This document shows, one piece after another, positions 1,440-20,035 of a stretch of 64,000 nt of DNA (position 1 is its first letter; every line of letters begins with the position of its first letter). The notes beneath the pieces are model-generated. The model searched no databases. It was given only the letters and a program-made list of their open reading frames with translations, and was not told the origin of the DNA. Origin of the DNA: Gammaproteobacteria bacterium HGW-Gammaproteobacteria-13 (lineage in GTDB: Bacteria > Pseudomonadota > Gammaproteobacteria > Pseudomonadales > Pseudomonadaceae); contig PGZH01000008.1 in NCBI GenBank assembly GCA_002840155.1, positions 400,062 through 464,061 of the forward strand, given 5' to 3'. The translations under genes and the position numbers were made by a program.

Positions 1440-1617
1440 CAAAGTCTCGCGAGCTAGAGTCATGCAAGGTGCAACGACCAACGGGAGTAACAGCCGAAGG
1501 CTGGCCCGAAGGGTAAGCGCCAGCGAATAAAACAGGCGAGGAAGCGGAGTTTACTGATGTAAATGAGCATTCCGAGCCTGTCTTTAACGCAGCAGGGTCG
1601 ACGCGCAGCAGACTTTG
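1440..1617 (+). repeat. Imperfect palindromic intergenic element, copy 1 (with about 58-bp insert)
   Basis: This fills most of the rpmE-priA gap (1289-1651). The ends are an 8-bp inverted repeat, CAAAGTCT and AGACTTTG. The interior matches the other two copies: CGCGAGCTAGAG, then ATGCAAGG, GAGGAAGCGGAGTTTAC, TGTAAATGAGCATTCCGAG and CGACGCGCAGCAG. Relative to the other copies an unrelated segment of about 58 bases is inserted near 1470-1527. Plus orientation, with its right end 34 bases before the priA start. Confidence 0.8.
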
Positions 1618-1651
1618 GGCAGGTTATTACCCGAGACTAGGAGCCTCTTGC

Positions 1652-3871
1652 TTGCCCGACGTCATTCTGCGCCTCGCCTTGCCCTCGCCGCTGCGCCGCC
1701 TGTTCGACTACCGTGCCCCGCCCGGTGTGCCGCGCAGTGCTCTGCAGCCAGGCGCACGGCTGCGCGTGCCGTTTGGCAGGAGGGAAATGATCGGCATCCT
1801 GATCGAGGTGAGCGAACACAGCGAAGTTCCGGCCGACAAACTCAAGCCCGCCCTGCAACTGCTCGACGCCCAATCACCGCTACCGCCCGCACTGTTCAAG
1901 CTGTGCCTGTGGACCGCGCAGTATTACCAGCACAGCCTCGGCGACACCCTGAGCTGGGCGCTGCCGGTGCTGCTGCGCCAGGGCGAACCGGCAGAAGTAC
2001 GCCAACAGCGTTTCTGGTCAGTCACGGAAGGCGCACAGTTCGATGATCCACGCCTGAGCCGCGCGCCGCGCCAGCGTGATGCGCTGAAAACCCTCGCCCA
2101 GCACCCCCACGGCGTCGCCCATCCGCTGCTGAGCAAGCTGCAGTTGAACAAGGACAGCCTCGACCTGCTGCTGGAAAAGGGCCTGGTCAAGGTCGAAGTG
2201 CGCCGCCATGCGCCGAGCGAGCGCCACGCCAACTGGCTGGCGCAACCGGAACTGCCACTGAATGCTGAGCAGCGCGCGGCCAGCGAAGCGATCCGTTCGG
2301 GCTTTGGCAGCTTCAACGCCTTTCTCCTGGCCGGGGTCACCGGCAGCGGCAAGACCGAGGTCTACCTGCAGCTGATCCGCGAAACCCTGGAGGCCGGCAA
2401 GCAGGCTCTGGTGCTGATCCCGGAAATCAACCTCGGCCCGCAGACCCTGGCGCGCTTCGAACAGCGCTTCAATGCGCGCATCGCCCTGCTGCACTCGGCG
2501 GTGAACGACCGCGAGCGCCTGGACGCGTGGCTGGCGGCGCGTGACGGCGAGGCCGATATCATCATCGGCACGCGCTCGGCGCTGTTCACCCCCATGCAGC
2601 GGCCGGGTCTGATCATCATCGATGAAGAACACGACGCCTCCTATAAACAGCAGGAAGGCCTGCGCTACCACGCCCGCGATCTGGCAGTGGTGCGCGCCCA
2701 TCAGGACAACATCCCGATTGTCCTGGGCTCGGCCACGCCCTCGCTGGAAAGCCTGCACAACGCCCACAACGGCCGCTACGCCCTGCTGCACCTGCGTGAA
2801 CGCGCCGGCGGCGCCAAGCAGCCGCGTTTTCTGCGCTTGGATGTAAAAAGCCGGCCGCTGGATTCCGGCATCTCCGGCCCGATGCAGCAGGCTATCGCCC
2901 AGACCCTGCAAGCCGGCCAGCAAGTACTGGTATTCCTCAACCGCCGCGGCTTCGCCCCGACCCTGCTCTGCCACGACTGCGGCTGGTTGTCCGAGTGTCC
3001 GCGTTGCGACGCACGCATGACCGTGCACCAGCGCTCGCGCGAGCTGCGCTGCCACCATTGCGGCCACGTCGAGCGGCAGCCGAGCAACTGCCCGAAGTGC
3101 AACACCGTCGACCTGCGCCCGGTTGGCGCCGGCACCGAGCGCGCCGAAGAACGCCTGGAGATTCTCTTCCCCGACGTGCCGGTATTGCGCGTCGACCGCG
3201 ACAGCACCTCGCGCAAAGAAGCCATGACCACCCTGTTCAATACCGTGCAGCGCGGCGAGCCGTGCATCCTGGTCGGCACGCAGATGCTCGCCAAGGGCCA
3301 CCACTTCCCGCGCGTGACTCTGGTGGCGATTCTCGACGCCGATGGCGGGCTGTTTTCCGCGGATTTTCGCGCCAGCGAGCGCATGGCTCAGCTGATCGTT
3401 CAGGTCGCCGGCCGCGCCGGGCGCGCCGAAGAGCCGGGCAAGGTGATTATCCAGAGCCACCTGGCCGACCATCCTTTATTGGTGCAACTGACCGAGCAGG
3501 GCTACTTCGCCTTTGCCGAACAAGCCCTCAGCGAACGGCGCAGCGCCGGCCTGCCGCCCTTTTGTCACCTCGCCCTGCTGCGCGCCGAGGCGCACAAACC
3601 GGGCCAGGCCGAAGGTTTTCTCGATGACGCCTGCACTGAAGCCGAGTTGTTATTGAATGAACTGAAACTCAGCGGCATTGAGCTGCTCGGCCCGGTGCCA
3701 GCACCGATGGAACGCCGCGCCGGCCGCTACCGCGCCCAGCTGCTGGTGCAGGCCAACGCCCGCGCACCGCTGCACCGCCTGCTCAATACCTGGATGCACG
3801 CTTTGGAGCAGATGCCCAGCGGCCGCGCCGTGCGTTGGTCGTTAGATGTCGACCCGATCGACCTGTTCTAG
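1652..3871 (+). CDS. priA: Primosomal replication restart helicase PriA
   Basis: A 739-residue superfamily 2 DNA helicase that recognises stalled or collapsed replication forks and reloads the replisome. Visible are the N-terminal DNA-binding domain (LRLALPSPLRRLFDY), Walker A GVTGSGKTEVY near residue 228, the DEEH box near residue 324, and the cysteine-rich zinc-binding insertion (about residues 440-487) with CxxC pairs. The C-terminal helicase motifs include VAGRAGRAEEPG. The start is TTG at 1652, preceded by AGGAG about 9 bases upstream; no in-frame ATG fits the family N-terminus. The gene is flanked on both sides by inverted copies of a palindromic repeat. Confidence 0.97.
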   Translation: MPDVILRLALPSPLRRLFDYRAPPGVPRSALQPGARLRVPFGRREMIGILIEVSEHSEVPADKLKPALQLLDAQSPLPPALFKLCLWTAQYYQHSLGDTLSWALPVLLRQGEPAEVRQQRFWSVTEGAQFDDPRLSRAPRQRDALKTLAQHPHGVAHPLLSKLQLNKDSLDLLLEKGLVKVEVRRHAPSERHANWLAQPELPLNAEQRAASEAIRSGFGSFNAFLLAGVTGSGKTEVYLQLIRETLEAGKQALVLIPEINLGPQTLARFEQRFNARIALLHSAVNDRERLDAWLAARDGEADIIIGTRSALFTPMQRPGLIIIDEEHDASYKQQEGLRYHARDLAVVRAHQDNIPIVLGSATPSLESLHNAHNGRYALLHLRERAGGAKQPRFLRLDVKSRPLDSGISGPMQQAIAQTLQAGQQVLVFLNRRGFAPTLLCHDCGWLSECPRCDARMTVHQRSRELRCHHCGHVERQPSNCPKCNTVDLRPVGAGTERAEERLEILFPDVPVLRVDRDSTSRKEAMTTLFNTVQRGEPCILVGTQMLAKGHHFPRVTLVAILDADGGLFSADFRASERMAQLIVQVAGRAGRAEEPGKVIIQSHLADHPLLVQLTEQGYFAFAEQALSERRSAGLPPFCHLALLRAEAHKPGQAEGFLDDACTEAELLLNELKLSGIELLGPVPAPMERRAGRYRAQLLVQANARAPLHRLLNTWMHALEQMPSGRAVRWSLDVDPIDLF

Positions 3872-4010
3872 AACCTTTTTACGATCTGCTGCGCGTCGGC
3901 CCTGCTGCGTTAAAAACAGGCTCGGAATGCTCATTTACACCAGTAAACTCCGCTTCCTCGCCTATTTTTGCCTTGCATGGCTCTAGCTCGCGAGATCGTA
4001 AATAAGGTTC
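3871..4010 (-). repeat. Imperfect palindromic intergenic element, copy 2 (abuts priA stop)
   Basis: About 140 bp, in inverted orientation relative to copy 1. The ends form a near-perfect inverted repeat (GAACCTTTTTACGATCT at the left; AGATCGTAAATAAGGTTC at the right). The interior CAGGCTCGGAATGCTCATTT and TGTAAACTCCGCTTCCTCG parts are themselves an imperfect palindrome. It begins on the last base of the priA stop codon and probably also acts as a structured 3' end for the priA transcript. The rest of the priA-dbpA gap (4011-4106) shows nothing I recognise. Confidence 0.82.
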
Positions 4011-4106
4011 TAAGCCGCGCCGGCCCACGACCGGCTGCCTGTTAACGTCGGGGCGTAGGGCGCAGCCTGTTACACTGCACGCCATTTCGTTTAGCAGGCC
4101 TGTACC

Positions 4107-5486
4107 GTGACCAACACCGCTTTCTCTTCTCTGCCGCTTTCCGCCGCCATGCTGGCGAACCTCGAGTCGCTCGGTTACACCGAGATGACCCCGATCCAGG
4201 CGCAGAGCCTGCCGGTAATGCTCAAGGGCATGGACCTGATTGCCCAGGCCAAGACCGGCAGCGGCAAGACCGCCGCCTTCGGCATCGGCCTGCTCAACCC
4301 GCTCAACCCGCGCTACTTCGGCTGCCAGGCACTGGTGATCTGCCCGACCCGCGAGCTGGCCGATCAGGTGGCGAAAGAGCTGCGTCGCCTGGCGCGCTCG
4401 GCGGACAACATCAAGATCCTCACCCTCTGCGGTGGTGTGCCGTTCGGCCCGCAGATCGGCTCCTTGGAGCACGGCGCGCAAATCATCGTCGGCACCCCAG
4501 GGCGCATCCAGCAGCACCTGAGCAAGGGCACCCTCAAGCTCGACGGCCTGAATACCTTGGTACTCGATGAAGCCGACCGCATGCTCGACATGGGCTTTTA
4601 CGACAGCATCGCCGAAATCATCAGCCAGACCCCAACGCGCCGGCAGACCCTGCTGTTCTCCGCCACCTACCCAGCCGGGATCAAGCAACTGTCTGCGACC
4701 TTTATGCGCGACCCGCAGCAGGTCAAGGCCGAGGCGCTGCACGATGACACGCAGATTGAGCAGCGCTTCTACGAAATCGCCCCGGAAGAGCGCCTGGACG
4801 CAGTGGTCAAGCTGCTCAACAGCTACCGCCCGCAATCCTGCGTGGCCTTCTGCTTTACCAAGCAGCAGTGCCAGGAAGTGGTCGATCACCTGACCGCCAA
4901 AGGCATCTCGGCCGCCGCGCTGAACGGTGACCTGGAGCAACGCGACCGTGATCAAGTACTGGCAATGTTCGCCAATCGCAGCTTGTCGGTACTGGTGGCC
5001 ACCGATGTGGCCGCACGCGGTCTAGATATCGATGCACTGGACATGGTGATCAACGTCGAACTGGCGCGCGACTCGGAAATTCACATTCACCGCGTCGGCC
5101 GTACCGGTCGTGCTGGCGAAAAGGGCCTGGCCATGAGCCTGGTAGCCCCAGCCGAAGGCCATCGCGCCCAGGCTATCGAAACCTTGCAAAGGGCGCCGCT
5201 CAACTGGCACCCGCTGAGCAGCCTGAAGCACCAGGGCGGCGCGCCGTTACAGCCGCCGATGATTACCCTGTGCATCGGCGCCGGGCGCAAAGACAAACTG
5301 CGCCCCGGCGATATTCTCGGCGCCCTGACTGGCGAGGCTGGCATCCCTGGCGCGCAGGTCGGCAAGATCGCCATCTTCGACTTCCAGGCCTATGTCGCCG
5401 TTGAGCGCGTCGTGGCCATGCAGGCACTCAAATGCCTCAGTGAAGGCAAGATCAAGGGCCGCTCGCTGCGTATTCGTACCCTATAG
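4107..5486 (+). CDS. dbpA: ATP-dependent RNA helicase DbpA
   Basis: A 459-residue DEAD-box helicase acting late in 50S ribosome assembly through hairpin 92 of 23S rRNA. It has the Q motif (TPIQAQ), Walker A AKTGSGKT near residue 47, DEAD near residue 154, SAT, and HRVGRTGRAG. The C-terminal DbpA RNA-binding domain (about residues 385-459, beginning near PPMITLCIGAGRKDKLRPGD) separates it from other DEAD-box proteins such as RhlE, also in this window. The start is GTG at 4107, matching the usual N-terminus. From memory dbpA is not next to priA in P. aeruginosa, so this junction is probably a rearrangement point. Confidence 0.95.
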   Translation: MTNTAFSSLPLSAAMLANLESLGYTEMTPIQAQSLPVMLKGMDLIAQAKTGSGKTAAFGIGLLNPLNPRYFGCQALVICPTRELADQVAKELRRLARSADNIKILTLCGGVPFGPQIGSLEHGAQIIVGTPGRIQQHLSKGTLKLDGLNTLVLDEADRMLDMGFYDSIAEIISQTPTRRQTLLFSATYPAGIKQLSATFMRDPQQVKAEALHDDTQIEQRFYEIAPEERLDAVVKLLNSYRPQSCVAFCFTKQQCQEVVDHLTAKGISAAALNGDLEQRDRDQVLAMFANRSLSVLVATDVAARGLDIDALDMVINVELARDSEIHIHRVGRTGRAGEKGLAMSLVAPAEGHRAQAIETLQRAPLNWHPLSSLKHQGGAPLQPPMITLCIGAGRKDKLRPGDILGALTGEAGIPGAQVGKIAIFDFQAYVAVERVVAMQALKCLSEGKIKGRSLRIRTL

Positions 5487-5546
5487 TTGCCGCATAAGCT
5501 AAACAGACGGCCGCAGTGACGCGGCCAGCGACAGAGGAGTATCCCC

Positions 5547-6782
5547 TTGCGCAATATTCTGGTGATCGAAGACAGCCCGCTGGTGCTGAAAATTCTCGAA
5601 CATCTGTTTCGCAAGGAGAGCGGTTTTCAGCCGATCTTCTGCGCCTCCATGGGCGAAGCGCAGGTGATGCTGGAAACCTCGGCCGAGCTGTTCTTCGCCG
5701 CCATCGTCGACCTCAACCTGCCGGATGCCCCAGACGGCGAGATCGTCGATGTGGTGATGAGCTATCACCTGCCCTGCATCGTCCTCAGCGGCACCTACAA
5801 CGAGCAGCGCCGCGACCAGATGCTGCTCAAGGGCGTGGTCGATTACGTGCTCAAGGAAAGCCAGCACTCCTACGAGTATGCCTTCCGCCTGCTGCACCGC
5901 CTGGAAAGCAACAGCGAGGTGAAGATCCTCATCGCCGAGGATTCCGACGCCACCCGCCATTACATCCGCCACGTGCTGACCCCGCATCGCTACCAGATTA
6001 TGGAAGCCTGCGACGGCGACGAAGCCCTGCGCATCCTCAAGGAACAACCGGATATCGACCTGCTGGTAGTCGACCACAGCATGCCGGGGCTCAGCGGTTT
6101 TGAGCTGGTCAAACTGCTGCGGCAAAAGATGAAGCGCCACGAGTTGATCATTCTCGGCCTGTCCGCCGACACCAAGGGCTCGCTCAGCGCCAAATTTATC
6201 AAGCACGGCGCCGACGACTTTCTGCGCAAACCCTTCTGCCCGGAAGAGCTCAACTGCCGGGTGATGTCGACCCTGGAGCGCCGCGACCTGCTGCGCGCGC
6301 TCAAGCAGGCCGCGCAGTTCGACGCCCTGACCGGCCTGAACAACCGCCGCGCGTTTTATGAGCATGGCCAGCAGCTGTTCCAGCAGGCACGCTCGGGCGG
6401 CCGCGACCTTAGCGTGGCGATGCTCGATCTGGATTTCTTCAAACGGATCAACGACGAACACGGCCACGCCAGCGGCGATGCAGCACTGATCGCCTTCTCC
6501 CGCGCATTTTCTGCCGCCTTCCCCGATGCCCTGCTCGGCCGTCTGGGTGGCGAAGAGTTCGCCATGGTCAGCCAGCAGGATGCCGCGACCCTCAGCGACA
6601 CCCTCGACCAACTGCGTACACACTGCGCCAGCCTGAAATACGCCATCGGCGCACCGCCGCTGTCGTTCAGCGCCGGCATCTACCACGGTGCCCCCGATGA
6701 TCTGGAAAGCCTGCTGCACCAGGCCGACCTGCGCCTGTATCAGGCCAAGAACCAGGGCCGCGGGCGCAACTGCTGGCAATAG
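5547..6782 (+). CDS. Diguanylate cyclase response regulator (REC-REC-GGDEF)
   Basis: A 411-residue cytoplasmic protein. The first receiver has acidic residues E8/D9 and predicted phosphoacceptor D55 (IVDLNLPD). The second (about residues 124-245) has AEDSD and D176 (VVDHSMPG). The C-terminal GGDEF domain (from about 258) has an intact active-site motif GGEEF at 334-338, so it should make cyclic di-GMP. I see no RxxD inhibitory site just upstream, so product inhibition by the usual route is unlikely. Architecture resembles GcbA/PA4843-type proteins, but orthology is not established. The start is TTG after AGAGGAGT. No partner kinase is adjacent. Confidence 0.9.
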   Translation: MRNILVIEDSPLVLKILEHLFRKESGFQPIFCASMGEAQVMLETSAELFFAAIVDLNLPDAPDGEIVDVVMSYHLPCIVLSGTYNEQRRDQMLLKGVVDYVLKESQHSYEYAFRLLHRLESNSEVKILIAEDSDATRHYIRHVLTPHRYQIMEACDGDEALRILKEQPDIDLLVVDHSMPGLSGFELVKLLRQKMKRHELIILGLSADTKGSLSAKFIKHGADDFLRKPFCPEELNCRVMSTLERRDLLRALKQAAQFDALTGLNNRRAFYEHGQQLFQQARSGGRDLSVAMLDLDFFKRINDEHGHASGDAALIAFSRAFSAAFPDALLGRLGGEEFAMVSQQDAATLSDTLDQLRTHCASLKYAIGAPPLSFSAGIYHGAPDDLESLLHQADLRLYQAKNQGRGRNCWQ

Positions 6783-6785
6783 CCG

Positions 6786-7523
6786 CTACAAACCATGGCG
6801 CTGAAAAATCTGCGCATAGCTGCCATCGGCGCGCATCTCCTCAATCGCCTTGTTGAAGGCATCGGCAATCTGCTGATGCTGCGGGTGTTTGCGGCTGACC
6901 AGAATATGCAGGCCGTTCTCACTTAACGGCTGCGGCAGAAACTCCAGCTGATTACGAATCCCGGCCAGGCTGCGGCTTAGGTGATAGCGCGCCACCAGTT
7001 CGTCCTCCAGGGTCAGCTGCACCCGCCGCGCCTGCAGCATGCGCGCGCCCACTTCAAAGCCAACCACGCCGACCTTGGTCAGCCGGCTGTCCTGATCAAA
7101 CTCGCTGGAATAGGCATAACCGCGCACCACGGCAATGCTGTAGGGGTACAGGTCGGGCAACTGGGTGAATTTGATCTGGCTGCCCTTGCGCTGCAGAAAC
7201 CGCACGCGGTTGATCAGGTAGGGCTGTGAGTAATGGCCAAAAACCGCGCGCTCGTCGGTGTACCAGGCGTTGATCAGCACATCATAGATTTCTTGCTGCA
7301 ACCCCCGCACCGCACGCTCCCACGGCACCTGCACATAGCTGGTGGTGTAACCGGCGCGAGTCAGCGCGGTGGTCACCAGGTCGGAGGACACCCCGTTGTT
7401 CAGCAGCGTCTGGTCATTGAATGGCGGCCAAGGGTCCGCCACCAACCGCAAGGTCTCTGCAGCATGGCCATACAGAGGCGCCAACAGCGCCCACGACAGC
7501 AGGCAGGCACGCAGTCCATTCAT
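6786..7523 (-). CDS. Periplasmic solute-binding protein, family 3 (orphan)
   Basis: 245 residues with a Sec signal peptide (MNGLRACLLSWALLAPLYGHA), then an SBP_bac_3 fold starting ETLRLVADPWPPFND, the usual beginning of amino-acid-type binding proteins. It lacks an adjacent permease or ATPase, so it may serve a distant ABC transporter or act as a sensor. I chose the ATG at 7523 because the longer reading frame would bury the signal peptide behind 47 unlikely residues. The stop lies 3 bases from the convergent GGDEF gene. Confidence 0.8.
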   Translation of the reverse strand: MNGLRACLLSWALLAPLYGHAAETLRLVADPWPPFNDQTLLNNGVSSDLVTTALTRAGYTTSYVQVPWERAVRGLQQEIYDVLINAWYTDERAVFGHYSQPYLINRVRFLQRKGSQIKFTQLPDLYPYSIAVVRGYAYSSEFDQDSRLTKVGVVGFEVGARMLQARRVQLTLEDELVARYHLSRSLAGIRNQLEFLPQPLSENGLHILVSRKHPQHQQIADAFNKAIEEMRADGSYAQIFQRHGL

Positions 7524-7662
7524 CAACGGCGGTTCCAGAGGAAGCGGAAAGCTAATCCTAGCTGCCACAACGCTTTTTAACAGCGCATTCATAGCCGCGA
7601 ACACGCCGAACGCTATTCTGTGCGCACAACAACCCAATACGGCACACAAGGAGTTCTGCCGC

Positions 7663-8226
7663 ATGACGCAACGCCCCCTACGTATTTACGAGGCCACGCA
7701 TGCTGATCTAGAGGTTTTGCAGCGCATCGGCTGCGAGACCTACCGTGAGCATTTCAGTGAAATCTGGACAGACGCGGGGATGCAGCGCTTTCTTTCCGAC
7801 GATTTCTCCAGCGAGAGCCTGACCAGCTCGCTCGCGGCCACAGAACAGCATCTGTGGCTGCTGGCCGAGGACGACGCTGGCAACACTCAAGGCTTTGCCA
7901 AACTCAACTGGAACAGCTCCATGCCTTTGGACAATAAAGCGGGCGTAGAACTGCAGAAGATCTACCTGCTCAAGTCCGCGACCGGCAAAGGCTATGGCGA
8001 GCAGTTACTGCGGGTTATCTGTGAACGTGTGCTGGCGCGACAACAACAGCTGCTGTGGCTGGATGTTCTAAAGAGCAATCGCGCAGCACACGCTTTCTAT
8101 ACACGGTTTGGTTTTCGTACCTGTGGCGAAATCCCATTCAACACTGACCTGTTGGAGATCGGTATGCAGGTAATGGCCTACGACCTCAGGTCTCGCCCGC
8201 AAGCGCACCCGACAACTTGCAGTTAA
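7663..8226 (+). CDS. GNAT family N-acetyltransferase
   Basis: A 187-residue GNAT protein. The central ELQKIYLLKSATGKGYGEQLL contains the acetyl-CoA pyrophosphate-binding loop (variant of Q/RxxGxG/A), followed by LWLDVLKSNRAAHAFYTRFGF, the classic C-terminal GNAT segment. It resembles small-molecule or protein-terminus acetyltransferases of the RimI/YhhY kind; the substrate cannot be read from sequence. AAGGAG sits about 9 bases before the ATG. It is divergent from the solute-binding gene with a short shared promoter region. Confidence 0.88.
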   Translation: MTQRPLRIYEATHADLEVLQRIGCETYREHFSEIWTDAGMQRFLSDDFSSESLTSSLAATEQHLWLLAEDDAGNTQGFAKLNWNSSMPLDNKAGVELQKIYLLKSATGKGYGEQLLRVICERVLARQQQLLWLDVLKSNRAAHAFYTRFGFRTCGEIPFNTDLLEIGMQVMAYDLRSRPQAHPTTCS

Positions 8227-8281
8227 GATGCGCGCTGTTTTGCGCCAGCCTTGGCGCGTGTCGCAGGTTGAGGAAATAGCT

Positions 8282-9466
8282 GTGCTTACACCCCAGGTCG
8301 TGATTATCGGAGCCGGTGCCGCCGGGCTTATGTGCGCGCTGACGGCTGCCGCGCGCGGGCGTCAGGTGCTGTTGCTGGATCACGCCAACAAGGCCGGCAA
8401 GAAAATCCTGATGTCCGGCGGTGGGCGCTGCAATTTCACCAATATGTACTGTGAGCCGAGCAACTTTCTCTCGGAAAACCCGCACTTCTGCAAGTCGGCC
8501 CTGGCGCGCTACACCCAGTGGGACTTTATCGGCCTGGTGGCCAAACACGGCGTGCCCTACCACGAGAAAAAGCTCGGCCAGCTGTTCTGCGACAACAAGG
8601 CCAGCGACATCCTCGGCCTGCTGCTCAGCGAGTGTGATGAAGCCGGCGTGACGCTGCGTCTGGACACCTCGGTGAGCGAGATCAGCAAGCTGGATAACGG
8701 CTACCAGCTGCAGACCAGTGCTGGCGCGGTGCGCTGCGAATCGCTGGTGATCGCCACTGGCGGCCTGTCGATTCCAACCCTCGGCGCCAGCGGCTTTGGC
8801 TATCAGGTGGCCAAGCAGTTCGGCCACGAGTTGCTGCCAACCCGCGCCGGTCTGGTGCCGTTCACCATCACCGACCCGCAGCTTAAGGCGCTGTGCACTG
8901 AGCTGTCCGGCACCTCGGTGGAGGACTGCGTGGTGAGCTGCAACGGCCAGAGCTTCAAGGAAAATATCCTGTTTACCCACCGTGGCGTCAGCGGCCCGGC
9001 GATTCTGCAGATTTCCTCATTCTGGCAACCCGGCGAGGCTATCAGCATCAATCTGTTGCCGCATATCGACCTGCCCGAGTGGCTGGAGCAGCAACAACGC
9101 GAACGCCCTAACAGCGAACTAAAAACCCTGCTCGCCGAGCTGTTTACCAAGAAGATGGCCGGCCTGCTGGCGGACAACTGGTTCGCCTCCAAGCCAATGA
9201 AGCAGTACACCCACGCCGAGCTCAAGGCGATTGCCGAACAGCTCGGCGACTGGCAGCTGGTGCCAGCCGGCACCGAAGGTTACCGCACCGCCGAGGTCAC
9301 CCTGGGCGGCGTGGATACCCGCGAGGTGTCGTCGAAAACCATGGAGTCGCTGAAATCGCCAGGGCTGTATTTTGTTGGCGAAGTGCTGGATGTAACGGGG
9401 CATCTGGGCGGCTTCAACTTCCAGTGGGCCTGGGCTTCGGGTTACGCCGCCGCGCAGTTTGTCTGA
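8282..9466 (+). CDS. HI0933/YhiN-family flavoprotein (NAD(P)/FAD-dependent oxidoreductase)
   Basis: 394 residues. The N-terminus VVIIGAGAAGLMCALTAA is a Rossmann FAD-binding motif. It is followed by the family signature KAGKKILMSGGGRCNFTN, an ATGGLSIPTLGASGFGY segment, and the C-terminal GEVLDVTGHLGGFNFQWAW that closes the FAD site. The family (HI0933, YhiN, BaiN) has poorly defined substrates; links to tRNA or bile-acid reduction exist only for some members. I prefer the GTG at 8282, which has GAGGAA upstream and starts right at the FAD fold; an ATG at 8228 would add 18 residues. Confidence 0.88.
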   Translation: MLTPQVVIIGAGAAGLMCALTAAARGRQVLLLDHANKAGKKILMSGGGRCNFTNMYCEPSNFLSENPHFCKSALARYTQWDFIGLVAKHGVPYHEKKLGQLFCDNKASDILGLLLSECDEAGVTLRLDTSVSEISKLDNGYQLQTSAGAVRCESLVIATGGLSIPTLGASGFGYQVAKQFGHELLPTRAGLVPFTITDPQLKALCTELSGTSVEDCVVSCNGQSFKENILFTHRGVSGPAILQISSFWQPGEAISINLLPHIDLPEWLEQQQRERPNSELKTLLAELFTKKMAGLLADNWFASKPMKQYTHAELKAIAEQLGDWQLVPAGTEGYRTAEVTLGGVDTREVSSKTMESLKSPGLYFVGEVLDVTGHLGGFNFQWAWASGYAAAQFV

Positions 9467-9467
9467 C

Positions 9468-13102: not shown

Positions 13103-13336
13103 ATGCAAGCCAACGTCCAAGAGCTCGAAACACTGTTCCAGCAACTGGGGCTCGACCATGACCAGGAAAGCATTGACCGCTTTATCAAGCGCCACTCGCC
13201 CCTGCCGGAAGACTGCCGCTTAGCCGATGCGCCATTCTGGGACACCGCCCAAGCCGACTTTCTCCGCCAACAGCTACTGGCAGACGCCGAATGGGCCGAG
13301 GTGGTGGATCAGCTCAATCTACTGCTGCGGGGCTGA
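13103..13336 (+). CDS. DUF2789 family protein
   Basis: A 77-residue acidic, helical protein, MQANVQELETLFQQLGLDHD..., matching the DUF2789 pattern of short proteobacterial proteins with no known role. AGGGGAG (13090s) precedes the ATG. It follows the Gre-like gene by 36 bases and may be the last gene of the yccS operon. Its last 18 bases overlap the end of the convergent YgjP-like gene. Confidence 0.8.
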   Translation: MQANVQELETLFQQLGLDHDQESIDRFIKRHSPLPEDCRLADAPFWDTAQADFLRQQLLADAEWAEVVDQLNLLLRG

Positions 13337-13843
13337 CAACTCGCCGAGTGAGCCGGGCAGTTCGCGCCAGGTCAGGTACACCCGCAGATCGAACTCCAGT
13401 TGGTGGTAGCCCGGCAGCATGTATTCGCAGAGTTTGTAGAAGGCCTTGTTGTGCTCGGCCTCCTTCAAATGCGCCAGCTCGTGCACCACGATCATCTGTA
13501 AAAACTCCGGCGCGGCCTCGCGAAACAGCGAGGCCACGCGGATTTCCTTCTTCGCCTTGAGCTTGCCGCCCTGCACCCGCGAGATCGCCGTATGCAGGCC
13601 GAGGGCGCGGTGGGTCAGGTCGAGGCGATTGTCGTAGAGCACCTTGTCGATGGCCGGGGCATTACGCAGGTGCTCCTGCTTGAGGCCCTGGATATAGGCG
13701 TACAGCGCCTTGTCGCTTTGAATCGAATGCTTGCCGCTGTAGGAACGTGCCAGATAATCACCTAGGCGCTGCTCGGCAATCAGCTGGCGGATCTTGTCTT
13801 GCAGCTGGGTCGGGTAGCCTTGCAGGTATTTAAGCGGGGTCAT
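13319..13843 (-). CDS. YgjP-like M48/WLM metallopeptidase
   Basis: A 174-residue cytoplasmic protein with the zinc motif VVHELAHLKEAEHNKAFY, that is, HExxH followed about 10 residues later by a third ligand His, as in the YgjP/DUF45 group related to SprT and WLM proteases. The upstream block LTHRALGLHTAISRVQGGKLKAKKEIRV fits the same family. Substrate unknown; relatives of this fold act on DNA-protein crosslinks or ubiquitin-like proteins. Its 3' end overlaps the DUF2789 gene tail to tail by 18 bases. Confidence 0.82.
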   Translation of the reverse strand: MTPLKYLQGYPTQLQDKIRQLIAEQRLGDYLARSYSGKHSIQSDKALYAYIQGLKQEHLRNAPAIDKVLYDNRLDLTHRALGLHTAISRVQGGKLKAKKEIRVASLFREAAPEFLQMIVVHELAHLKEAEHNKAFYKLCEYMLPGYHQLEFDLRVYLTWRELPGSLGELSAPQQ

Positions 13844-13922
13844 GATCGAAGTAACGCGGCACGATAAGGCCGTGAATTATGCCGCAAGCCGCACGCAACC
13901 AGGGCGGCTTTTGGCACCCCAG

Positions 13923-15023
13923 CTACTGGCTCGGTACAACCCGCAGCAACCGACCATCTGCACTGTCAGTGAGCAGGTACAACGCGCCATCCGGACCGAC
14001 ACGCACATCGCGAATACGCTCTTCCAGTTCCTCGAACAGCACGTCCTCACCGGCCAACTTGCCGTCCTGCAGACGAATGCGTCGCACACTGCGCTCAGCC
14101 AGGGTCGAGGCAAACAGGTCGCCCTGCCATTCGGGGAACAGCGCGCCGCGGTACAGGGTCAGGCTCGACGGTGCGACCGAGGGTGTCCATTGCAACAAGG
14201 GCTGCTGCAGGCCGGGCAGCTCGGTGTAAGGCGAGATTTGTGCGCCGGTGTAATCGACGCCGAAGGTGATCAGCGGCCAGCCATAGTTGTTGCCGGGCTC
14301 GATCAGGTTCAGCTCATCGCCGCCGCGCGGGCCGTGCTCGTGGCTGTACAGGCGCTGCAGCTGGTTGTCGTAGACGATGCCCTGCACGTTACGATGGCCC
14401 AGGCTGTAGATCTCCGCGGCGGCGCCGGCCTGACCCACGAGCGGGTTATCCTTGGGAATGCTGCCGTCGCGGTTGAGGCGCACAATCTTGCCGATATGGT
14501 TGCTCGGGTCCTGGGCCTGCTCACGCAGGTCAAAGCCATCGCCCAGGGTCAGCACCAGGCTGTTATCCGGCAGCCAGGCCATGCGCCCACCATAGTGCGC
14601 GGCACCTGCTTTGGCCGGCTGCGCGCTGAACAGCACCTGCAGCTCCTGCAATTGCCCATCGACCAGCCGCGCCTTGCTCAGGCGGGTGTTGTTGGCCTGG
14701 GCGGTGCCGTAGGCGTAGCTCAGATACAGCTGCTGATTGCTGGCGAACTCGGGGTCAAGCAGCACCTCCATCAACCCGGCCTGGGCGGCGACAAAGCCCT
14801 CGGGCACGCCACCGACCGGCTGCGGATTAAGACTGCCGTCCGGCTCGATGATGCGCAGGCGGCCGACTCGCTCAGTCACCAACATGCGCCCATCCGGCAG
14901 AAAGGCCAGCGACCAGGGGTGCTCCAGGCCTTCGGTCACGGTTTCGATGCGGTAATCCATGGCGTGCGCCAGGCTGCTGCCAAGCAGACCAAGCAACAAC
15001 AGAGCGCGGGAGGTATTCAGCAT
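13923..15023 (-). CDS. PQQ-dependent sugar dehydrogenase (Asd/YliI-type beta-propeller)
   Basis: A 366-residue exported protein with a signal peptide cleaved after SSLAHA. The six-bladed beta-propeller of soluble aldose sugar dehydrogenases is indicated by LEHPWSLAFLPDGRMLVTER, the GGRMAWLPDNSLVLTLGDG segment, and GHRNVQGIVYD...SHEHGPRGGDELN, which provides PQQ- and calcium-binding residues. It would oxidise aldoses at the outer face of the cell and feed electrons to the respiratory chain. It ends about 80 bases after the YgjP-like start on the same strand. Confidence 0.88.
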   Translation of the reverse strand: MLNTSRALLLLGLLGSSLAHAMDYRIETVTEGLEHPWSLAFLPDGRMLVTERVGRLRIIEPDGSLNPQPVGGVPEGFVAAQAGLMEVLLDPEFASNQQLYLSYAYGTAQANNTRLSKARLVDGQLQELQVLFSAQPAKAGAAHYGGRMAWLPDNSLVLTLGDGFDLREQAQDPSNHIGKIVRLNRDGSIPKDNPLVGQAGAAAEIYSLGHRNVQGIVYDNQLQRLYSHEHGPRGGDELNLIEPGNNYGWPLITFGVDYTGAQISPYTELPGLQQPLLQWTPSVAPSSLTLYRGALFPEWQGDLFASTLAERSVRRIRLQDGKLAGEDVLFEELEERIRDVRVGPDGALYLLTDSADGRLLRVVPSQ

Positions 15024-15054
15024 GGTTCGGGCCTTTTGCTCACAGAGGAATCAA

Positions 15055-15510
15055 TCAGGATTGTGCAGGCGACGAGCGCCGCGCCAGCACGGCAAATAGC
15101 AGCGCGCCCAGGCTGCCACAGGCCATCAGCCCGAGGGTGCCGGCCAGCGTGCGGTTGGCGCCGATCAGCGTCGGCATCGGCAGCAGCGCGTTGGCTAGCG
15201 CCATCGCCGCCAGCACCGCAATTGCTCCGGCCAGGGCAAACAGCAACCAGCGGCCTGTTGGCCAGACGCGCGCCAGGCCGCTCGCCACCGGCAAGGCAAA
15301 GATAAATCCGAGGATCACCAGCACCGCGAAGGTCGGGCTAAAGCCCAGTAGGTCCAGGCAGGTGGTGTGCACCCGCACACCAAGCGGCATGGGCGCGCCG
15401 AGTGCTTGCAGGTTGGCCAGATTGAACTGGGTCTGCAGCACGGTGCCCATCACACTCGCCAGCAGCACAGCCAGGAAGAAGTACAGCAGGGTGCGCAATT
15501 TGCTCGGCAT
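15055..15510 (-). CDS. Hypothetical inner-membrane protein, four predicted helices
   Basis: 151 residues, very hydrophobic, with likely membrane helices near 7-25, 57-80, 85-110 and 122-143. A loop after the first helix carries LGAPMPLGVRVHTTCLDLLGFSP. I do not recognise the family. It lies 31 bases upstream of the sugar dehydrogenase on the same strand, so the pair may be an operon. The ATG at 15510 has no strong ribosome binding site. Confidence 0.7.
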   Translation of the reverse strand: MPSKLRTLLYFFLAVLLASVMGTVLQTQFNLANLQALGAPMPLGVRVHTTCLDLLGFSPTFAVLVILGFIFALPVASGLARVWPTGRWLLFALAGAIAVLAAMALANALLPMPTLIGANRTLAGTLGLMACGSLGALLFAVLARRSSPAQS

Positions 15511-15688
15511 GCGGGCGGACTTCCAGAGACGACAGTGGCCCGAGTATGGACCAGCGCGCCGTGCGGCATGTGCTCGGTGTTTTACATGGTTTTACCAAGC
15601 CCACAAATGGGCGATAGGCGCAGCCACAGCGCTGTAGCAGAATGCCAGCAGCCATCCTGCCGACAACAACCCACACAAGAACCGCACG

Positions 15689-16687
15689 ATGAAAAAAGCC
15701 CTGTCCTTCTGCGCCCTGACGCTTGCGCTATTCGCCGTAGTGTTCAGCCTCGGCCCCGTGCCACCGGTCGACACACAACTGACCGCGGTCCAGCTACCTG
15801 CCGACCTCGACCGTTATCTGGCCGAGAGCGAAGCGCGCTACCCGGACATTACCCCCGGCGCGGAAAAAACCATCGTCTGGGCCCACCCGGATCAACGCCA
15901 GACGGACCTGGCAATCATCTACCTGCATGGCTACTCAGCCACCCGCCAGGAAACCGCGCCGCTAAGTGAACAACTGGCCGAGCAACTGGGCGCCAACCTG
16001 TTCGCTACTCGCCTTAACGGTCATGGTCGCAGTGGCGCGGCGATGGCCGAAGCCAGCGTGCACGACTGGCTGCAGGACAGCCAGGAGGCTTTGCAGATCG
16101 GCCAACGCCTGGGCAAGCAGATACTGGTGATCGGCACCTCGACCGGCGCCACCCTCGCCACCTGGCTGGCGTTGCAGGGCGATAACCCGCAGGTGCTGGC
16201 CTATATCATGGTATCGCCGAACTTCGCCCCCAAAGACCCAGCCGCCACCGTGCTGACCTGGCCCTGGGCCAGCCATTTCGTGCCCTTGCTGCTGGGCCCC
16301 GAGCATCAATGGCAACCGCGCAATGCCGAGCAGGCGCGCTACTGGAGCCACCGCTACCCGGTGCAGGCGCTGCTGCCGATGATGGCGCTGGTGAAATACG
16401 TACGCGAGCAGCCGCTGGAGCAGATCAGCACGCCGATTCTCACGCTCTATTCGCAGGACGATCAGGTGGTCAGCGCCCCCGCCATCGAGGCCGCCTTCGC
16501 CCGCTTCGGCTCACCGCACAAACAGTTGGTCGCCCTCAAGGACACCCAAGACCCATCGCACCATGTGCTGGCTGGCGAGATTCTTTCGCCAAGCGACACC
16601 GCGCGAGTAAACCTGGCGATCATGCAGTTTCTAAAAGCTTTGCCGGGCCTGCCGTCAATATCGATGCGCAACGCAGACTCGCAATAA
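15689..16687 (+). CDS. Alpha/beta hydrolase with signal peptide
   Basis: 332 residues beginning with a hydrophobic signal or anchor (KKALSFCALTLALFAVVFSLG). The hydrolase fold shows the oxyanion region IIYLHGYSATRQE, nucleophile elbow GTSTG near residue 150, acid in LYSQDDQVV, and catalytic His in DPSHHVL. It looks like a monoacylglycerol-lipase or carboxylesterase-like enzyme acting in the periplasm or membrane; substrate unknown. It is convergent with the collagenase. Confidence 0.85.
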   Translation: MKKALSFCALTLALFAVVFSLGPVPPVDTQLTAVQLPADLDRYLAESEARYPDITPGAEKTIVWAHPDQRQTDLAIIYLHGYSATRQETAPLSEQLAEQLGANLFATRLNGHGRSGAAMAEASVHDWLQDSQEALQIGQRLGKQILVIGTSTGATLATWLALQGDNPQVLAYIMVSPNFAPKDPAATVLTWPWASHFVPLLLGPEHQWQPRNAEQARYWSHRYPVQALLPMMALVKYVREQPLEQISTPILTLYSQDDQVVSAPAIEAAFARFGSPHKQLVALKDTQDPSHHVLAGEILSPSDTARVNLAIMQFLKALPGLPSISMRNADSQ

Positions 16688-16695
16688 GCGGCCCA

Positions 16696-16728
16696 TAAAA
16701 AATGCTCGCATCCAAGGATACGAGCATT
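16696..16728 (-). terminator. Intrinsic terminator of the collagenase gene
   Basis: Arms AATGCTCGCATCC and GGATACGAGCATT with a 2-base centre and one mismatch, followed on the minus strand by a run of six T. It lies between the convergent hydrolase and collagenase genes and fits the minus strand best. Confidence 0.8.
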
Positions 16729-16766
16729 GATTAGCGAGCAAAGCGTGGCTCTAGGCCAGCCGTACC

Positions 16767-19259
16767 TCAGTCACGCGGTGGCCGGGCCAGGCTTGCACGC
16801 GTGTCCAGCTGACGCTGATGCACCGTGGCATGCTCCGGCATGTCCTGCACCTCACTCAGCTGCGCCGCACTACGGGGTTGTTGCAGCCAGTTGGCAAGTA
16901 GCTGGTCGCGCCACTGCGGGTACTGGGCGCCGTGCAGCCGGTTCAGCTCATCAAGCCCCTGCCGGTAGGCGCCCAGGTCATTACGGCGCAGGTGTGCGGC
17001 CAAGGCCAAATGGCGGGCTGGATCACGCTCCTGCAGGTAACGATGCAGGGTGTAAGACCAGTGATAGACCATGCTGCTGCCACTCTCGTAACTCAGCTTG
17101 GTGATCGCCTCAAGGCTCGGGCGCTGGCCAGCAGCCACTCGGCTGATGTCATTCATGCCACGCTCGAAATGGCTTCCCCAGGCCAGGTATTCCGCCAAGC
17201 CTTCCGCCCACCAAGTGGTCAGATTCAGCGGGTAGTGGCCAAACGAGCCGTATTGATTGAAGCGACCGTCCAGGTAGTGGACGTACTCATGGTTCAAGTT
17301 CCACACCTGCCCCGCCTGTACATAAGCGAAGAAACGCGCCTGATTGCCCGCCAGCCAAGGGCTACCTTCCAGGTACATGCCACCATTGTCGGTGCTGAAG
17401 CCATATAGCAGCCCGCCGAATTTCTGGTACTGCTCGCGGCTGGAGAAAATCACCAATTCCAACGCCGCGTTGAGGTCATCGGCAACCGGCGTCCAGTTGG
17501 TTTGCATGATGCGATGGAAGTCCTGCTCCTGCTTGCCCAGGCTCTGACAGATGTCCAGCATTTGCGTCTGGCTCAATGGCTGTGAACGTACCTTCAGCGT
17601 GGGACCGCAGACGTGCGTTTGCGGCAACACCTGAGCGATTTCAAACTTGTAGCACAGCCCGTTGAACAGGCTGCTGCACGCACCGTCAACATCTGCACGG
17701 TAGGCGTAGTCCACGTAATAGCTGCGGAAGTTGCTCTTCAGCTCCAGATCATCCAGCACCCCTTGCCCGAGATGCGCCTGCATCACCTGGCGTACTGCAC
17801 GGTTGCTGCCCTCACGCCAGACGCCATCACTCAGCTGGGCAAGTTTGCCCAAGGCCTCAATGGCGTTCATTACGATAAAGCCATCGCGATTGAGCCACAG
17901 CGCATTGCGGCTGCTGGCCAGTTGGGCGATCGCGTCTGGAAAGCGGCTGTCCTGGATCAACGCGCTGCGTAATGCGCCTTCGGCCCAGCCAAAACGGTCA
18001 AACAGGTTCAAAGTCTCGAATACTGCATCACCGTAACTGCGCTCCTTGCTCAGCTGCGCGGTACTGGTGAAATGCTGCAGTAGCGCCTGCAAACGCGGCA
18101 GGTGCCGCACGATACCGGCACTGGCTTGCGGTGTAGCCATCAGCGCACCCAGACCGACGACATAACCTTCGATTACCTCACCCGAGGCCTTCTGGTAGGT
18201 CAGCAATTCACGCATGTTCGACACCTGGAACAGCGCGTGCTCCAGCATGCTCAACTGCGCCGCAGTGGCCTTGCTGAAACCCAGGAAGTAGTTATAGGCA
18301 CGCACGTAGTACAACAGCTTGTTCAGGTCAGGGTCCTGAATCTGTTGCTGGCGGGCCAGGAAGTCGATGGCGGCCAATACCGCCTCCAGACGTCCAGCCT
18401 TGGCATGCTGGAAATGCTCCACGAAGAACTCGTTCTCCAGTACCTCACGGACCATTGGCGAGAAATCCGCTTTGCTCCGCAGCGAAGGGTCCAGCGGCGG
18501 CAGGGTCGGCTGCACCGGCGGTTGCGGCGTAACCGGCGGCTCTATCGGGGGCTGCACCGGTGGTGTAACGGGAGGTGTAACCGGCGGCTGTGGCTGTGCC
18601 CCGCTACGCAGCTGCAGACGAACCTGAGTAATACCAGAATGGGCATGCTTGCTGTCCCTGATCTGGTAGCTGAAGCTGTCCTCGGCGTTCTGCTCACGAT
18701 AGGCCCGATAGCTGTAGCGCCCGGTTTTACCATCCAGCTTGAGGCTACCCAGGCGTGGGTAATCAATGATGCTGAACGTCAACGGGTCGCGGTCCGCATC
18801 CCGCCCCAACAGAGTCGCTTCAAACAGCGTATTGGTACTCACAGCCAGAACCTGGCTGGTCGCCTCTGGCGCACGATTACCAGCGCTGCCGTCTGCAGGC
18901 AACAGGTTAAGCTGCACCACGGCAGGTACCGACCAGCTCTTGCCATCGGTAGCGCGGTATTCAAATTCGTCGTAATGGCCAGGGGCGCTGGCAGTCGGCT
19001 GATACTCATAACGCCCAGTGTTCCAATCCAGCTGAATACGGCCGTACTTGGGCTGCTTGGTAATCGCAAACGTGATCCGCTCGCCTTGCGCATCGCGCGC
19101 CCAGATCCAGCTGGCATTCACCTTACCCGCGGCGATGTGCTCACTGTGTCCCCGCACTTCAGGGGCCTGGTTAACCTCAGCAAGCGCGGCGCTCAGTGGC
19201 GTCAAAGCCAGGATTAGTGCGCAGGCGTGCAGGTCTTTTCTGATTATTTTTCTGAACAT
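16767..19259 (-). CDS. Secreted collagenase-like metalloprotease (peptidase M9)
   Basis: 830 residues with a signal peptide (ending LSAALA). Two tandem cadherin/Ig-like repeats follow (about residues 30-115 and 120-210), each with a GRYxYxP/A and EFEY or SFSY pattern. Next comes a proline linker of PVTPPV/PPIEPP type (about 215-255) and then the M9 collagenase body. The catalytic zinc site is HEYVH near residue 655, with the third ligand Glu in WWAEGLAEYLAWG. It should cleave collagen or similar proteins outside the cell. Ig-like domains sit before the catalytic body rather than after it as in clostridial enzymes. I chose the ATG at 19259 on the signal peptide; the ribosome binding site is weak. 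Confidence 0.88.
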   Translation of the reverse strand: MFRKIIRKDLHACALILALTPLSAALAEVNQAPEVRGHSEHIAAGKVNASWIWARDAQGERITFAITKQPKYGRIQLDWNTGRYEYQPTASAPGHYDEFEYRATDGKSWSVPAVVQLNLLPADGSAGNRAPEATSQVLAVSTNTLFEATLLGRDADRDPLTFSIIDYPRLGSLKLDGKTGRYSYRAYREQNAEDSFSYQIRDSKHAHSGITQVRLQLRSGAQPQPPVTPPVTPPVQPPIEPPVTPQPPVQPTLPPLDPSLRSKADFSPMVREVLENEFFVEHFQHAKAGRLEAVLAAIDFLARQQQIQDPDLNKLLYYVRAYNYFLGFSKATAAQLSMLEHALFQVSNMRELLTYQKASGEVIEGYVVGLGALMATPQASAGIVRHLPRLQALLQHFTSTAQLSKERSYGDAVFETLNLFDRFGWAEGALRSALIQDSRFPDAIAQLASSRNALWLNRDGFIVMNAIEALGKLAQLSDGVWREGSNRAVRQVMQAHLGQGVLDDLELKSNFRSYYVDYAYRADVDGACSSLFNGLCYKFEIAQVLPQTHVCGPTLKVRSQPLSQTQMLDICQSLGKQEQDFHRIMQTNWTPVADDLNAALELVIFSSREQYQKFGGLLYGFSTDNGGMYLEGSPWLAGNQARFFAYVQAGQVWNLNHEYVHYLDGRFNQYGSFGHYPLNLTTWWAEGLAEYLAWGSHFERGMNDISRVAAGQRPSLEAITKLSYESGSSMVYHWSYTLHRYLQERDPARHLALAAHLRRNDLGAYRQGLDELNRLHGAQYPQWRDQLLANWLQQPRSAAQLSEVQDMPEHATVHQRQLDTRASLARPPRD

Positions 19260-19448
19260 AGCGTCATCATCTTGATGAATAGTAAGGGGCGCGGATTCTA
19301 TCCAGCCCCCTACCGTGAAGACGCCAATCACCGCACGTTGCCTGCAACTTAGCCGGCTTTTACTGGTTAAATCCAGAATTTGCGCAACTGATCGCAACCC
19401 AAGTGCCAACTCGTTCGTACCGCAGACCCTCAATGCATCTACCTGGGA

Positions 19449-19850
19449 TTACTGCGCCTGATCCACACAGGACCGAGCGTCGACATGAAAATCACAGGAT
19501 TGCCCACGCAGATAACTGCGGTAGATCTGCAACAGCTGCGCATTAAAGGCAAAGGCGCTCTGCTCGGCTTCGGCCAGACGGATATATAGCGCCGGCCAGT
19601 CAGTGACCGGCGCATCGGCCGGGGTAAACAGCAAGCGTCCGTCACGCTGCACCAGCGGCGCGCCGGCTGCGGCGTAGTCGAAGACAAACAACAGTGTGCG
19701 CGAGGTCTTGGTGGTGCACTCGACGCGGCTATCACAGCGCTGCGGATCGCTCGCTACAACCATGGCGATTGGCGGCTCGCTAACCGGCGGCTGACTTGTA
19801 CAGCCGGCCAATGCGGTGAGTCCGACTAACAGCGCGATCAACCTCGTCAT
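19449..19850 (-). CDS. Hypothetical lipoprotein
   Basis: 133 residues with a lipoprotein signal (LLVGLTALAGC, acylated Cys about residue 17) and four further cysteines, which could form two disulfides in the periplasm. I do not recognise the family. It is a separate unit between the fba terminator and the collagenase gene. The 189 bases between it and the collagenase start hold no gene I can support. Confidence 0.7.
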   Translation of the reverse strand: MTRLIALLVGLTALAGCTSQPPVSEPPIAMVVASDPQRCDSRVECTTKTSRTLLFVFDYAAAGAPLVQRDGRLLFTPADAPVTDWPALYIRLAEAEQSAFAFNAQLLQIYRSYLRGQSCDFHVDARSCVDQAQ

Positions 19851-19866
19851 AGAGTCCTCCCGGATA

Positions 19867-19892
19867 ACAAAAAGCCCCGCATCGGCGGGGCT
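19867..19892 (-). terminator. Intrinsic terminator downstream of fba
   Basis: Perfect 8-bp arms AGCCCCGC and GCGGGGCT with loop ATCG, followed on the minus strand by TTTTTG. It lies beyond repeat copy 3, so that repeat is transcribed as part of the fba 3' untranslated region. Confidence 0.85.
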
Positions 19893-19909
19893 CTAAGTAC
19901 AAATTACGC

Positions 19910-20029
19910 ACGATCTTGCGAGCTAGAGCGATACAAGGCGAAAGCAGCCGAGGAAGCGGAGTGTACGAGTTGTACATGAGCATTCCGAGGCTGCTTTCAA
20001 CGCCGTAGCGCCGACGCGCAGCTGATCGT
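19910..20029 (+). repeat. Imperfect palindromic intergenic element, copy 3
   Basis: 120 bp between the fba stop and the fba terminator. The ends are ACGATC and GATCGT. The interior shares GCGAGCTAGAG, ACAAGGCGAAAGCAGCCGAG, GAAGCGGAG, TGTACATGAGCATTCCGAGG and GCCGACGCGCAGC with copies 1 and 2. It has no insert, so it shows the compact form of the element. Confidence 0.82.
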
Positions 20030-20035
20030 CCGGGG

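What the first reader, a model, noticed from the sequence alone, without database searches (positions are those of the whole stretch)
1440..20029. Three-copy 120-180 bp palindromic element whose terminal inverted repeats co-vary
Copies at 1440-1617, 3871-4010 and 19910-20029 share a conserved interior (GAGCTAGAG, GAGGAAGCGGAG, GAGCATTCCGAG, GACGCGCAGC). Their ends differ between copies but stay complementary within each copy: CAAAGTCT with AGACTTTG, TACGATCT with AGATCGTA, ACGATC with GATCGT. Compensating changes imply selection for pairing, either as an RNA or cruciform structure or as recognised ends. I know of no established name for it.
Basis: partly seen in the sequence, partly recalled or inferred. 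Interest (0 to 1): 0.72.

Follow-up and report, generated by a model that had tools for sequence, protein, structure and literature searches.

The report
ERIC-like folded mobile repeat, swapped ends
The three repeats are copies of a small parasitic DNA element, present about a hundred times in this genome and in many other bacteria, which keeps one folded core but carries end sequences of several kinds, some shared with known transposons; the classic ERIC repeats of gut bacteria look like a branch of the same family.

Summary
Spans: 1431-1626 (+), 3871-4010 (-), 19900-20035 (+). A covariance model of the core finds 105 matches in this genome and matches in 136 of 398 sampled Pseudomonadota genomes. 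Pairing is kept through change: 27 of 29 core pairs show double changes, 91.4% of cells pair, shuffled 70.5%; terminal stems co-vary even within one end class. These are MITEs. Ends fall into at least five classes that tend to have their own target duplications; classes A and B share ends and duplications with IS5-family elements, class C shares ends, not duplication length, with an IS1182-family element. G.T exceeds A.C on one strand in most stems, so a folded single strand is probably under selection. Six ERIC loci, absent from training, match both models, some weakly. What the fold does is inferred: most likely RNA, since insertions at stop codons are oriented (97 against 36).

The parts
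1431..1626 (+). copy 1, whole element, class A ends, with an extra ~60-base hairpin module in the left arm
   Evidence: lies between rpmE (1073-1288, -) and priA (1652-3871, +)
1470..1529 (+). inserted arm module of copy 1 (approximate limits)
   Evidence: by eye about half of the 36 irregular copies listed have a similar insert at this arm position
1507..1610 (+). structured core of copy 1 as matched by model R1
   Evidence: 71.8 bits; the left part of the match falls in the insert
3871..4010 (-). copy 2, whole element, class A ends; its right end supplies the G of the priA stop codon TAG (3869-3871)
   Evidence: (103.1 bits); no model match at the same priA-dbpA junction in relative G014
19900..20035 (+). 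copy 3, whole element, decayed class A ends; its right end abuts the stop codon of a fructose-bisphosphate aldolase gene read leftwards (20036-21160)
   Evidence: (106.8 bits)

Best explanation
Each copy is a non-autonomous transposable element (MITE) of about 140 bp. SHOWN: the ends are terminal inverted repeats of several classes which tend to have their own target duplications; classes A and B share ends and duplications with IS5-family elements, class C shares its ends with an IS1182-family element; the interiors of these IS elements are unrelated. SHOWN: the ~105-nt interior and the terminal repeats can fold together into one long hairpin on the strand that reads GCGGAG, with stems that change by compensation and three recurrent non-Watson-Crick motifs. 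INFERRED: transposases of those IS elements move the element in trans; because the base of the hairpin is free to vary so long as it pairs, it can drift into or acquire the ends of another IS, so that one folded passenger is served by different transposases. Model matches SHOWN, homology INFERRED: ERIC has the same motifs in the same order. INFERRED, most likely: the folded strand acts as RNA, as proposed in print for ERIC, affecting transcripts it is joined to; this would explain why insertions sit at stop codons mainly in the orientation in which the neighbouring mRNA carries the other strand.
For: Distribution: 54 exact-pattern copies and 105 model matches, some partial (150 of 2165 candidates scored) in the own genome; 66 of 149 genus genomes; 136 of 398 phylum genomes; copies in two Bacteroidales MAGs, not in R1's training, at 51.6, 47.2 and 39.2 bits. 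Covariation. The pair next to the bulged G switches GC 34, CG 11, AT 3 of 52 rows. Duplications: 3 bp TNA for GARCCTG ends in 31 of 77 rows, TA for GGSTCTG in 17 of 20, 4 bp (mostly YTAR) for CAGGCYGTTGAAAAA in 8 of 15, 5 bp for CAGGCYGTGTGAAAAC in 4 of 17, 4 bp for GGGCACCTCTAAAAA in 4 of 9. IS elements. Strand asymmetry: G.T 67 vs A.C 14 in three core stems, 132 vs 29 in the 130 better terminal stems. ERIC: R1 25.1, 25.0, 19.9, 11.5, 9.6 and 7.1 bits on six loci, R2 34.9 to 14.9; in 49 kb of E. coli the ERIC is the only match up to E 10. Orientation at stop codons: right end 97, left end 36 of 224 copies, p 1e-7; class A 49:16, the rest 48:20. Absent in a relative.
Against: 64 of 224 copies have ends I could not classify. 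No IS was found for the TACGATCT variant of class A (ends listed for G000, G118, G109 and, cut short, G123; 18 viral stretches), for the YTAR class (cut listing; 12 viral stretches) or for class D (43 viral stretches). The IS1182-type element is flanked by 4-bp repeats (GACC or GGTC), not the 5 bp of class C copies. 40 of 77 class-A rows show no duplication, some because my end-finder misplaced the left end; the window's own copies keep at best a TA (copy 2). In the outer 8-position stem, which I left out of the core count, A.C exceeds G.T 87 to 55 (75 of the 87 at its outermost position, which I read as unpaired). The G.T:A.C ratio is 50:25 in the thinned set and 42:22 in distant rows, so relatedness inflates the larger numbers. 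Three of six ERIC alignments with R1 skip part of the hairpin; E. coli's own ERIC alone is not significant genome-wide. No expression, processing or transposition was measured.
Confidence: 0.78

Rival explanations
1. The selected form is single-stranded DNA, not RNA: the hairpin forms on one strand at replication forks, which pairs the two terminal repeats into one duplex end that a transposase can cut.
For: Terminal repeats themselves show the G.T over A.C bias (132:29); the C-GA-G tandem mismatch is stable in DNA as well (recalled).
Against: No orientation bias to replication in a small count by eye from the listing (G078 and G064, 14 vs 19, with the origin assumed at base 1). The stop-codon orientation bias fits RNA better.
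Confidence: 0.2
2. The core is a bidirectional intrinsic terminator kept because hosts benefit or at least tolerate it between converging genes.
For: A and T runs flank a GC-containing stem on both strands; many copies lie at gene ends.
Against: A terminator needs no conserved GCGGAG/TGAGCA, CGAG/CGAG and AAGGC/AACGC loops. The simple terminator scan flagged none of the three copies. Tail-to-tail is not the commonest arrangement (44 of 184).
Confidence: 0.12
3. Ends match only because template switching in palindromes copies one arm onto the other; there is no selection.
For: It would give compensatory changes in any long palindrome.
Against: It should erase the recurrent internal mismatches, and it predicts no G.T over A.C bias.
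Confidence: 0.07
4. The core is itself a mobile element that inserts into loops of pre-existing palindromes such as terminators or other MITEs.
For: The same core carries many different ends, and a few copies look as if they sit inside terminator-like palindromes (for example L096, L220, L087; by eye).
Against: Arm length is near 50 nt in every class, apart from copies with arm inserts, and the target duplications lie outside the terminal repeats.
Confidence: 0.08

Closest known systems
[quoted passage not shown]
   Same: Intergenic palindromic MITE-like repeat; AAGGC/CAACGC, CGAA or CGAG tandem G.A and GAG/TGA motifs in the same order in the fully aligned loci; model matches on six loci. Printed: an RNA-level, orientation-dependent effect on mRNA stability (PMC2229807, passages).
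   Different: Different stem and terminal sequences; by my reading ERIC lacks the bulged G. Other end classes and target duplications here. ERIC is described from Enterobacteriaceae and Vibrionaceae (PMC10969869, passages).
MITEPsy1 of Pseudomonas syringae
   Same: 100-nt Pseudomonas MITE with IS5-like ends and a 4-bp duplication, reported to transpose in vivo (PMC3189936, passages).
   Different: Its terminal repeat (GGAAGGTCTGAAAAAGCC) is not one of the classes here; whether its interior is this core was not tested.
Intergenic repeat families of P. fluorescens and P. putida (R178, R200; Ppu-9)
   Same: Repeats of roughly similar size in Pseudomonas; Silby et al. report a gene-tail bias for several of their families (PMC2718517 and PMC2267715, passages).
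   Different: Sequences are in supplements or figures that I could not read, so identity is unknown.
IS5-family and IS1182-family insertion sequences
   Same: Share terminal repeats with classes A, B and C, and duplications with A and B.
   Different: Carry a transposase and lack the folded core; the IS1182-type element's flanking repeat is 4 bp, class C copies have 5.

Membership tests
MITE (non-autonomous transposable element) | short, terminal inverted repeats, no transposase gene | tested here: met
   about 140 bp; terminal stems
MITE (non-autonomous transposable element) | target-site duplication | tested here: met
   class-typical duplications; missing in many copies and in the window's copies 1 and 3
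MITE (non-autonomous transposable element) | autonomous element with the same ends | tested here: met
   ends and duplication for classes A and B, ends only for C; none found for the YTAR class and D
MITE (non-autonomous transposable element) | mobility (sites without the element) | tested here: inconclusive
   one syntenic relative (G014) has no model match at copy 2's junction, but the rest of its intergenic spacer has diverged; no transposition assay
ERIC | ERIC central sequence | tested here: not met
   the window copies have GCGGAG-stem-TGAGCA instead of the ERIC centre; none of the 70 rows used to train R2 has the 32-base ERIC centre within 9 edits
ERIC | ERIC fold and loop motifs | tested here: met
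   weak for three of six loci with R1
ERIC | TA at the ends / TA target duplication (table in PMC2229807) | tested here: not met
   class A, to which the window copies belong, has TNA; class B has TA
Known Rfam family | match at gathering score | tested here: not met
   only an SAH riboswitch matches in the window
R178 of SBW25 | published consensus sequence | not testable with these tools
   the supplement could not be read; only its size (101 bp), internal repeat and counts were seen

The most novel reading that the evidence does not exclude
A single ancient, folded nucleic-acid parasite, of which ERIC is one branch, has spread through Pseudomonadota and into Bacteroidota by keeping a conserved structured core while repeatedly changing its ends to suit different transposases (IS5 groups, perhaps IS1182), the core being a functional RNA or ssDNA rather than an IS remnant.
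Probability: 0.42. Interest if true: 0.85.

Novelty: new variant of a known kind. Interest (0 to 1): 0.72.

Why it matters
MITEs are usually taken to be deletion remnants of one parent IS, and ERIC has been an orphan of the enterics. A conserved, strand-specific fold shared by elements with at least five kinds of ends, and with ERIC, would mean that the interior is what is selected and the ends are replaceable. It makes the old question of what ERIC does testable with many natural variants, gives a model to annotate a common repeat, and warns that many gene ends carry the same structured insert.

Tried and rejected
Rfam: no named family at the element. Phage records: no match; plasmids gave 5 records, all Pseudomonas, the two fetched being a class-B copy and a near relative of it. 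Literature: searches showed me no paper that joins ERIC with the Pseudomonas repeat or describes one core with several end classes; I saw listings and, of six papers, passages only, and most subscription papers are not in the library. MITEPsy1 as the same element: not shown. Autonomous class-A element in G000, G118, G109 and G123: by eye no clear pair of ends at IS distance, G123's list being cut. Viral contigs as a source of copies: 8 stretches, of which 3 look real (two alike) and 5 look like chance hits in coding DNA. My loose core regex was faulty, and its 'core' column was ignored. GC skew as a replication-orientation test: 67 of 111 negative, confounded by gene orientation. Replication orientation by eye: 14 vs 19, origin assumed. 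Dropped rows: L095, L165, L151, L196, L229 and L239 as chance or coding matches before the counts from then on, 7 further copies with short flanks and 36 without regular arms were left out of the rigid set of 181; one search used 180 distinct ones; for alignment A2 I left out by hand 4 of the 68 rows of A1 (L039, L064, L174, L191), which had inserts or misaligned arms.
Full report
WHAT IS THERE. The complete elements are 1431-1626 (+), 3871-4010 (-) and 19900-20035 (+); for copies 1 and 3 the stated coordinates stop short of the outer part of the terminal repeats. Copy 1 carries an extra hairpin module of about 60 bases in its left arm. Copy 1 lies between rpmE and priA, copy 2 between priA and dbpA, copy 3 at the 3' end of a class II fructose-bisphosphate aldolase gene. 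Copy 2's right end supplies the last base of the priA stop codon TAG, and copy 3's right end abuts the aldolase stop codon.

COPIES. A BLAST-type search gave 62 matching pieces in the own genome (40 of 121 candidates scored), an exact pattern 32 copies, a second pattern that leaves the stem bases free 54, and model R1 105 matches at E up to 0.01, some partial (150 of 2165 candidates scored). The second pattern, CGAG-3-GCGGAG-(12-17)-TGAGCA-3-CGAG, does not force any pair of the variable stems. In all, 230 distinct hits were parsed; six chance or coding matches were then dropped, leaving 224.

PAIRING. Within-copy pairing exceeds cross-copy pairing in every stem: outer 20 positions 13.5 vs 9.2; 9-bp stem 8.43 vs 5.94; 3-bp stem 2.92 vs 2.26; apical 5-bp stem 4.97 vs 4.29; 8-position stem 6.01 vs 4.12. 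On a 64-sequence alignment whose members were picked to be less than 90% identical in the core (64 of the 68 picked), 27 of 29 pairs have changes on both sides, 91.4% of cells pair (shuffled 70.5%, slid by 1-3 columns 31.5-41.9%), covariation score 0.563 (shuffled 0.171; 0 of 500 shuffles reach any of the five observed values). Its outermost helix of three pairs is weak (66.1% paired). Sequence relatedness is not removed by these controls. Within class A alone the terminal stems co-vary: 12.45 vs 9.84 of 17, 66 copies, largest of 2000 permutations 10.62.

RECURRENT LOOPS. Three interior motifs do not pair by Watson-Crick: AAGGC opposite AACGC, a C-GA-G tandem opposite itself, and GCGGAG opposite TGAGCA. 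The last two were part of the search pattern, so their invariance in pattern-derived copies means nothing; a search that allowed 3 mismatches shows variants such as GCGCAG. In 52 rows that came from model searches the last motif reads mostly N1-C-G-G-A-G / T-G-A-G-N1'-A with N1-N1' = GC 34, CG 11, AT 3, so it is best read as two pairs with a bulged G and a bulged A next to a tandem G.A and a G.T. Closing pairs of the C-GA-G motif also switch (GC 27, AT 13, TA 5). These rows were picked by a model trained on the motif, which biases them towards it.

STRAND. Among stem cells of 180 copies, G.T mismatches outnumber A.C 67 to 14 in the apical, 3-bp and 9-bp stems and 132 to 29 in the 130 terminal stems with at least 12 of 17 Watson-Crick pairs. 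In the outer 8-position stem the order is reversed, 55 to 87, but 75 of the 87 A.C cells are at its outermost position, which I read as unpaired. In the thinned alignment, that stem included, the ratio is 50:25 (p 0.005), and in distant rows 42:22 (p 0.017; these came through a model that itself tolerates G.U). A symmetric process, such as palindrome correction or selection on duplex DNA alone, predicts 1:1. I conclude that the strand reading GCGGAG is the one whose folding matters, with the caution that related copies are not independent.

ENDS. The same core carries ends of at least five classes, about 50 nt from the C-GA-G motif where the arms hold no insert, and each class tends to have its own target duplication. 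Class A: GARCCTGTT..., TNA, 31 of 77 rows with a 3-bp repeat, 40 with none. Class B: GGSTCTGTRYGAAA, TA, 17 of 20. A YTAR class: CAGGCYGTTGAAAAA, 8 of 15 with 4 bp (six of the eight fit YTAR). Class C: CAGGCYGTGTGAAAAC, 4 of 17 with 5 bp; three more with 4 bp are rows that also fit the YTAR class. Class D: GGGCACCTCTAAAAA, 4 of 9 with 4 bp. In a second, stricter assignment of 224 copies, 100 are A, 22 B, 15 the YTAR class, 14 C, 9 D, and 64 unassigned.

IS ELEMENTS WITH THE SAME ENDS. Class B: an IS with GGCTCTGTACGAAA ends and TA, lying directly against an element in G108, has two consecutive open frames that match an IS5-family transposase model at 123.9 and 102.1 bits. Class A: an 846-bp IS in viral contig L283 with GAACCTGTTCAAAGTCT ends and TTA on both sides; a 177-aa stretch matches the same IS5 model at 151.6 bits. 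Class C: a 1678-bp IS with CAGGCTGTGTGAAAACG ends in four viral contigs, three of them read, IS1182 family (457 bits); it is flanked by GACC or GGTC, 4 bp, which does not agree with class C's 5 bp. I saw no core in the class B element read in full; the interiors of the other two were read only as ends and protein. So the element is not an evident deletion remnant of these IS elements. That these transposases move it is inference from shared ends. IS5 subgroup names were recalled and are not used as evidence.

STOP CODONS. In 97 of 224 copies the right end of the GCGGAG strand has, from 12 bases outside to 3 bases inside, the stop codon of a frame open for 80 or more codons that reads into the element; for the left end the figure is 36 (p 1e-7). 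The bias holds in class A (49:16) and in the rest together (48:20). Chance stop codons formed at the junction should affect both ends alike. The neighbouring mRNA therefore tends to carry the strand whose fold is not conserved. For ERIC, a review I read in passages (PMC2229807) reports an orientation-dependent destabilisation of upstream transcripts through RNase E in Yersinia. A cost of the GCGGAG-sense RNA in a neighbour's 3' UTR is my inference.

ERIC. Model matches in distant genomes led me to compare ERIC. With six ERIC loci (E. coli, Citrobacter, Providencia, Rahnella, Enterobacter and an E. coli plasmid), model R1, trained without them, gives 11.5, 25.1, 19.9, 9.6, 25.0 and 7.1 bits, each the best match of its locus; in the alignments of Providencia, Rahnella and the plasmid copy part of the hairpin is skipped. 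Model R2, trained on 70 wider matches none of which holds the ERIC centre within 9 edits, gives 20.9, 34.8, 30.4, 23.6, 34.9 and 14.9. The best two would be significant in a whole genome; the E. coli one alone would not (E 6e-4 in 49 kb). The full alignments shown put AAGGC on AAGGC, AACGC on AACGC (AACAC in Providencia), and GAG/TGA on GAG/TGA, with the tandem G.A at its equivalent in most. I take ERIC as a distant branch; convergence to one fold cannot be excluded.

MOBILITY. In relative G014 the priA and dbpA flanks match at 84% and 94%. The priA stop codon is followed by unrelated spacer, and the locus has no model match. This fits an insertion at the stop codon, but the spacer has diverged too much to show a clean empty site.

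VERDICT. Structured MITE family with exchangeable ends, kin of ERIC: well supported. Function of the fold: open, RNA favoured.

Noticed in passing
window 34234-34384 +: SAH riboswitch, 55 bits, above the Rfam gathering score.
   Followed up: no
window 21994-22094 +: A weak fourth match of model R1 (15.0 bits, E 0.025), probably chance.
   Followed up: no
window 1470-1529; loci L002, L010, L103, L105, L148, L207, L213, L271-L275: Extra hairpin modules are inserted in the arms, often at the same positions, in copies of different end classes, as if the arms accept further palindromes.
   Followed up: partly
L269 343-395; L270 286-368: Elements with the terminal repeats but most of the core missing.
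   Followed up: no
L354, L360, L367 and other viral contigs: A different MITE of about 159 bp with IS1182-type ends and no such core.
   Followed up: no
L143 and L199 (Bacteroidales MAGs): Three element copies with their own terminal stems; neighbouring frames read, to my eye, like guaB, guaA and pgk.
   Followed up: partly
G123: A 4.2-Mb genome of the genus with 102 core matches at up to 3 mismatches and 93 exact class-A ends, possibly a recent expansion.
   Followed up: partly
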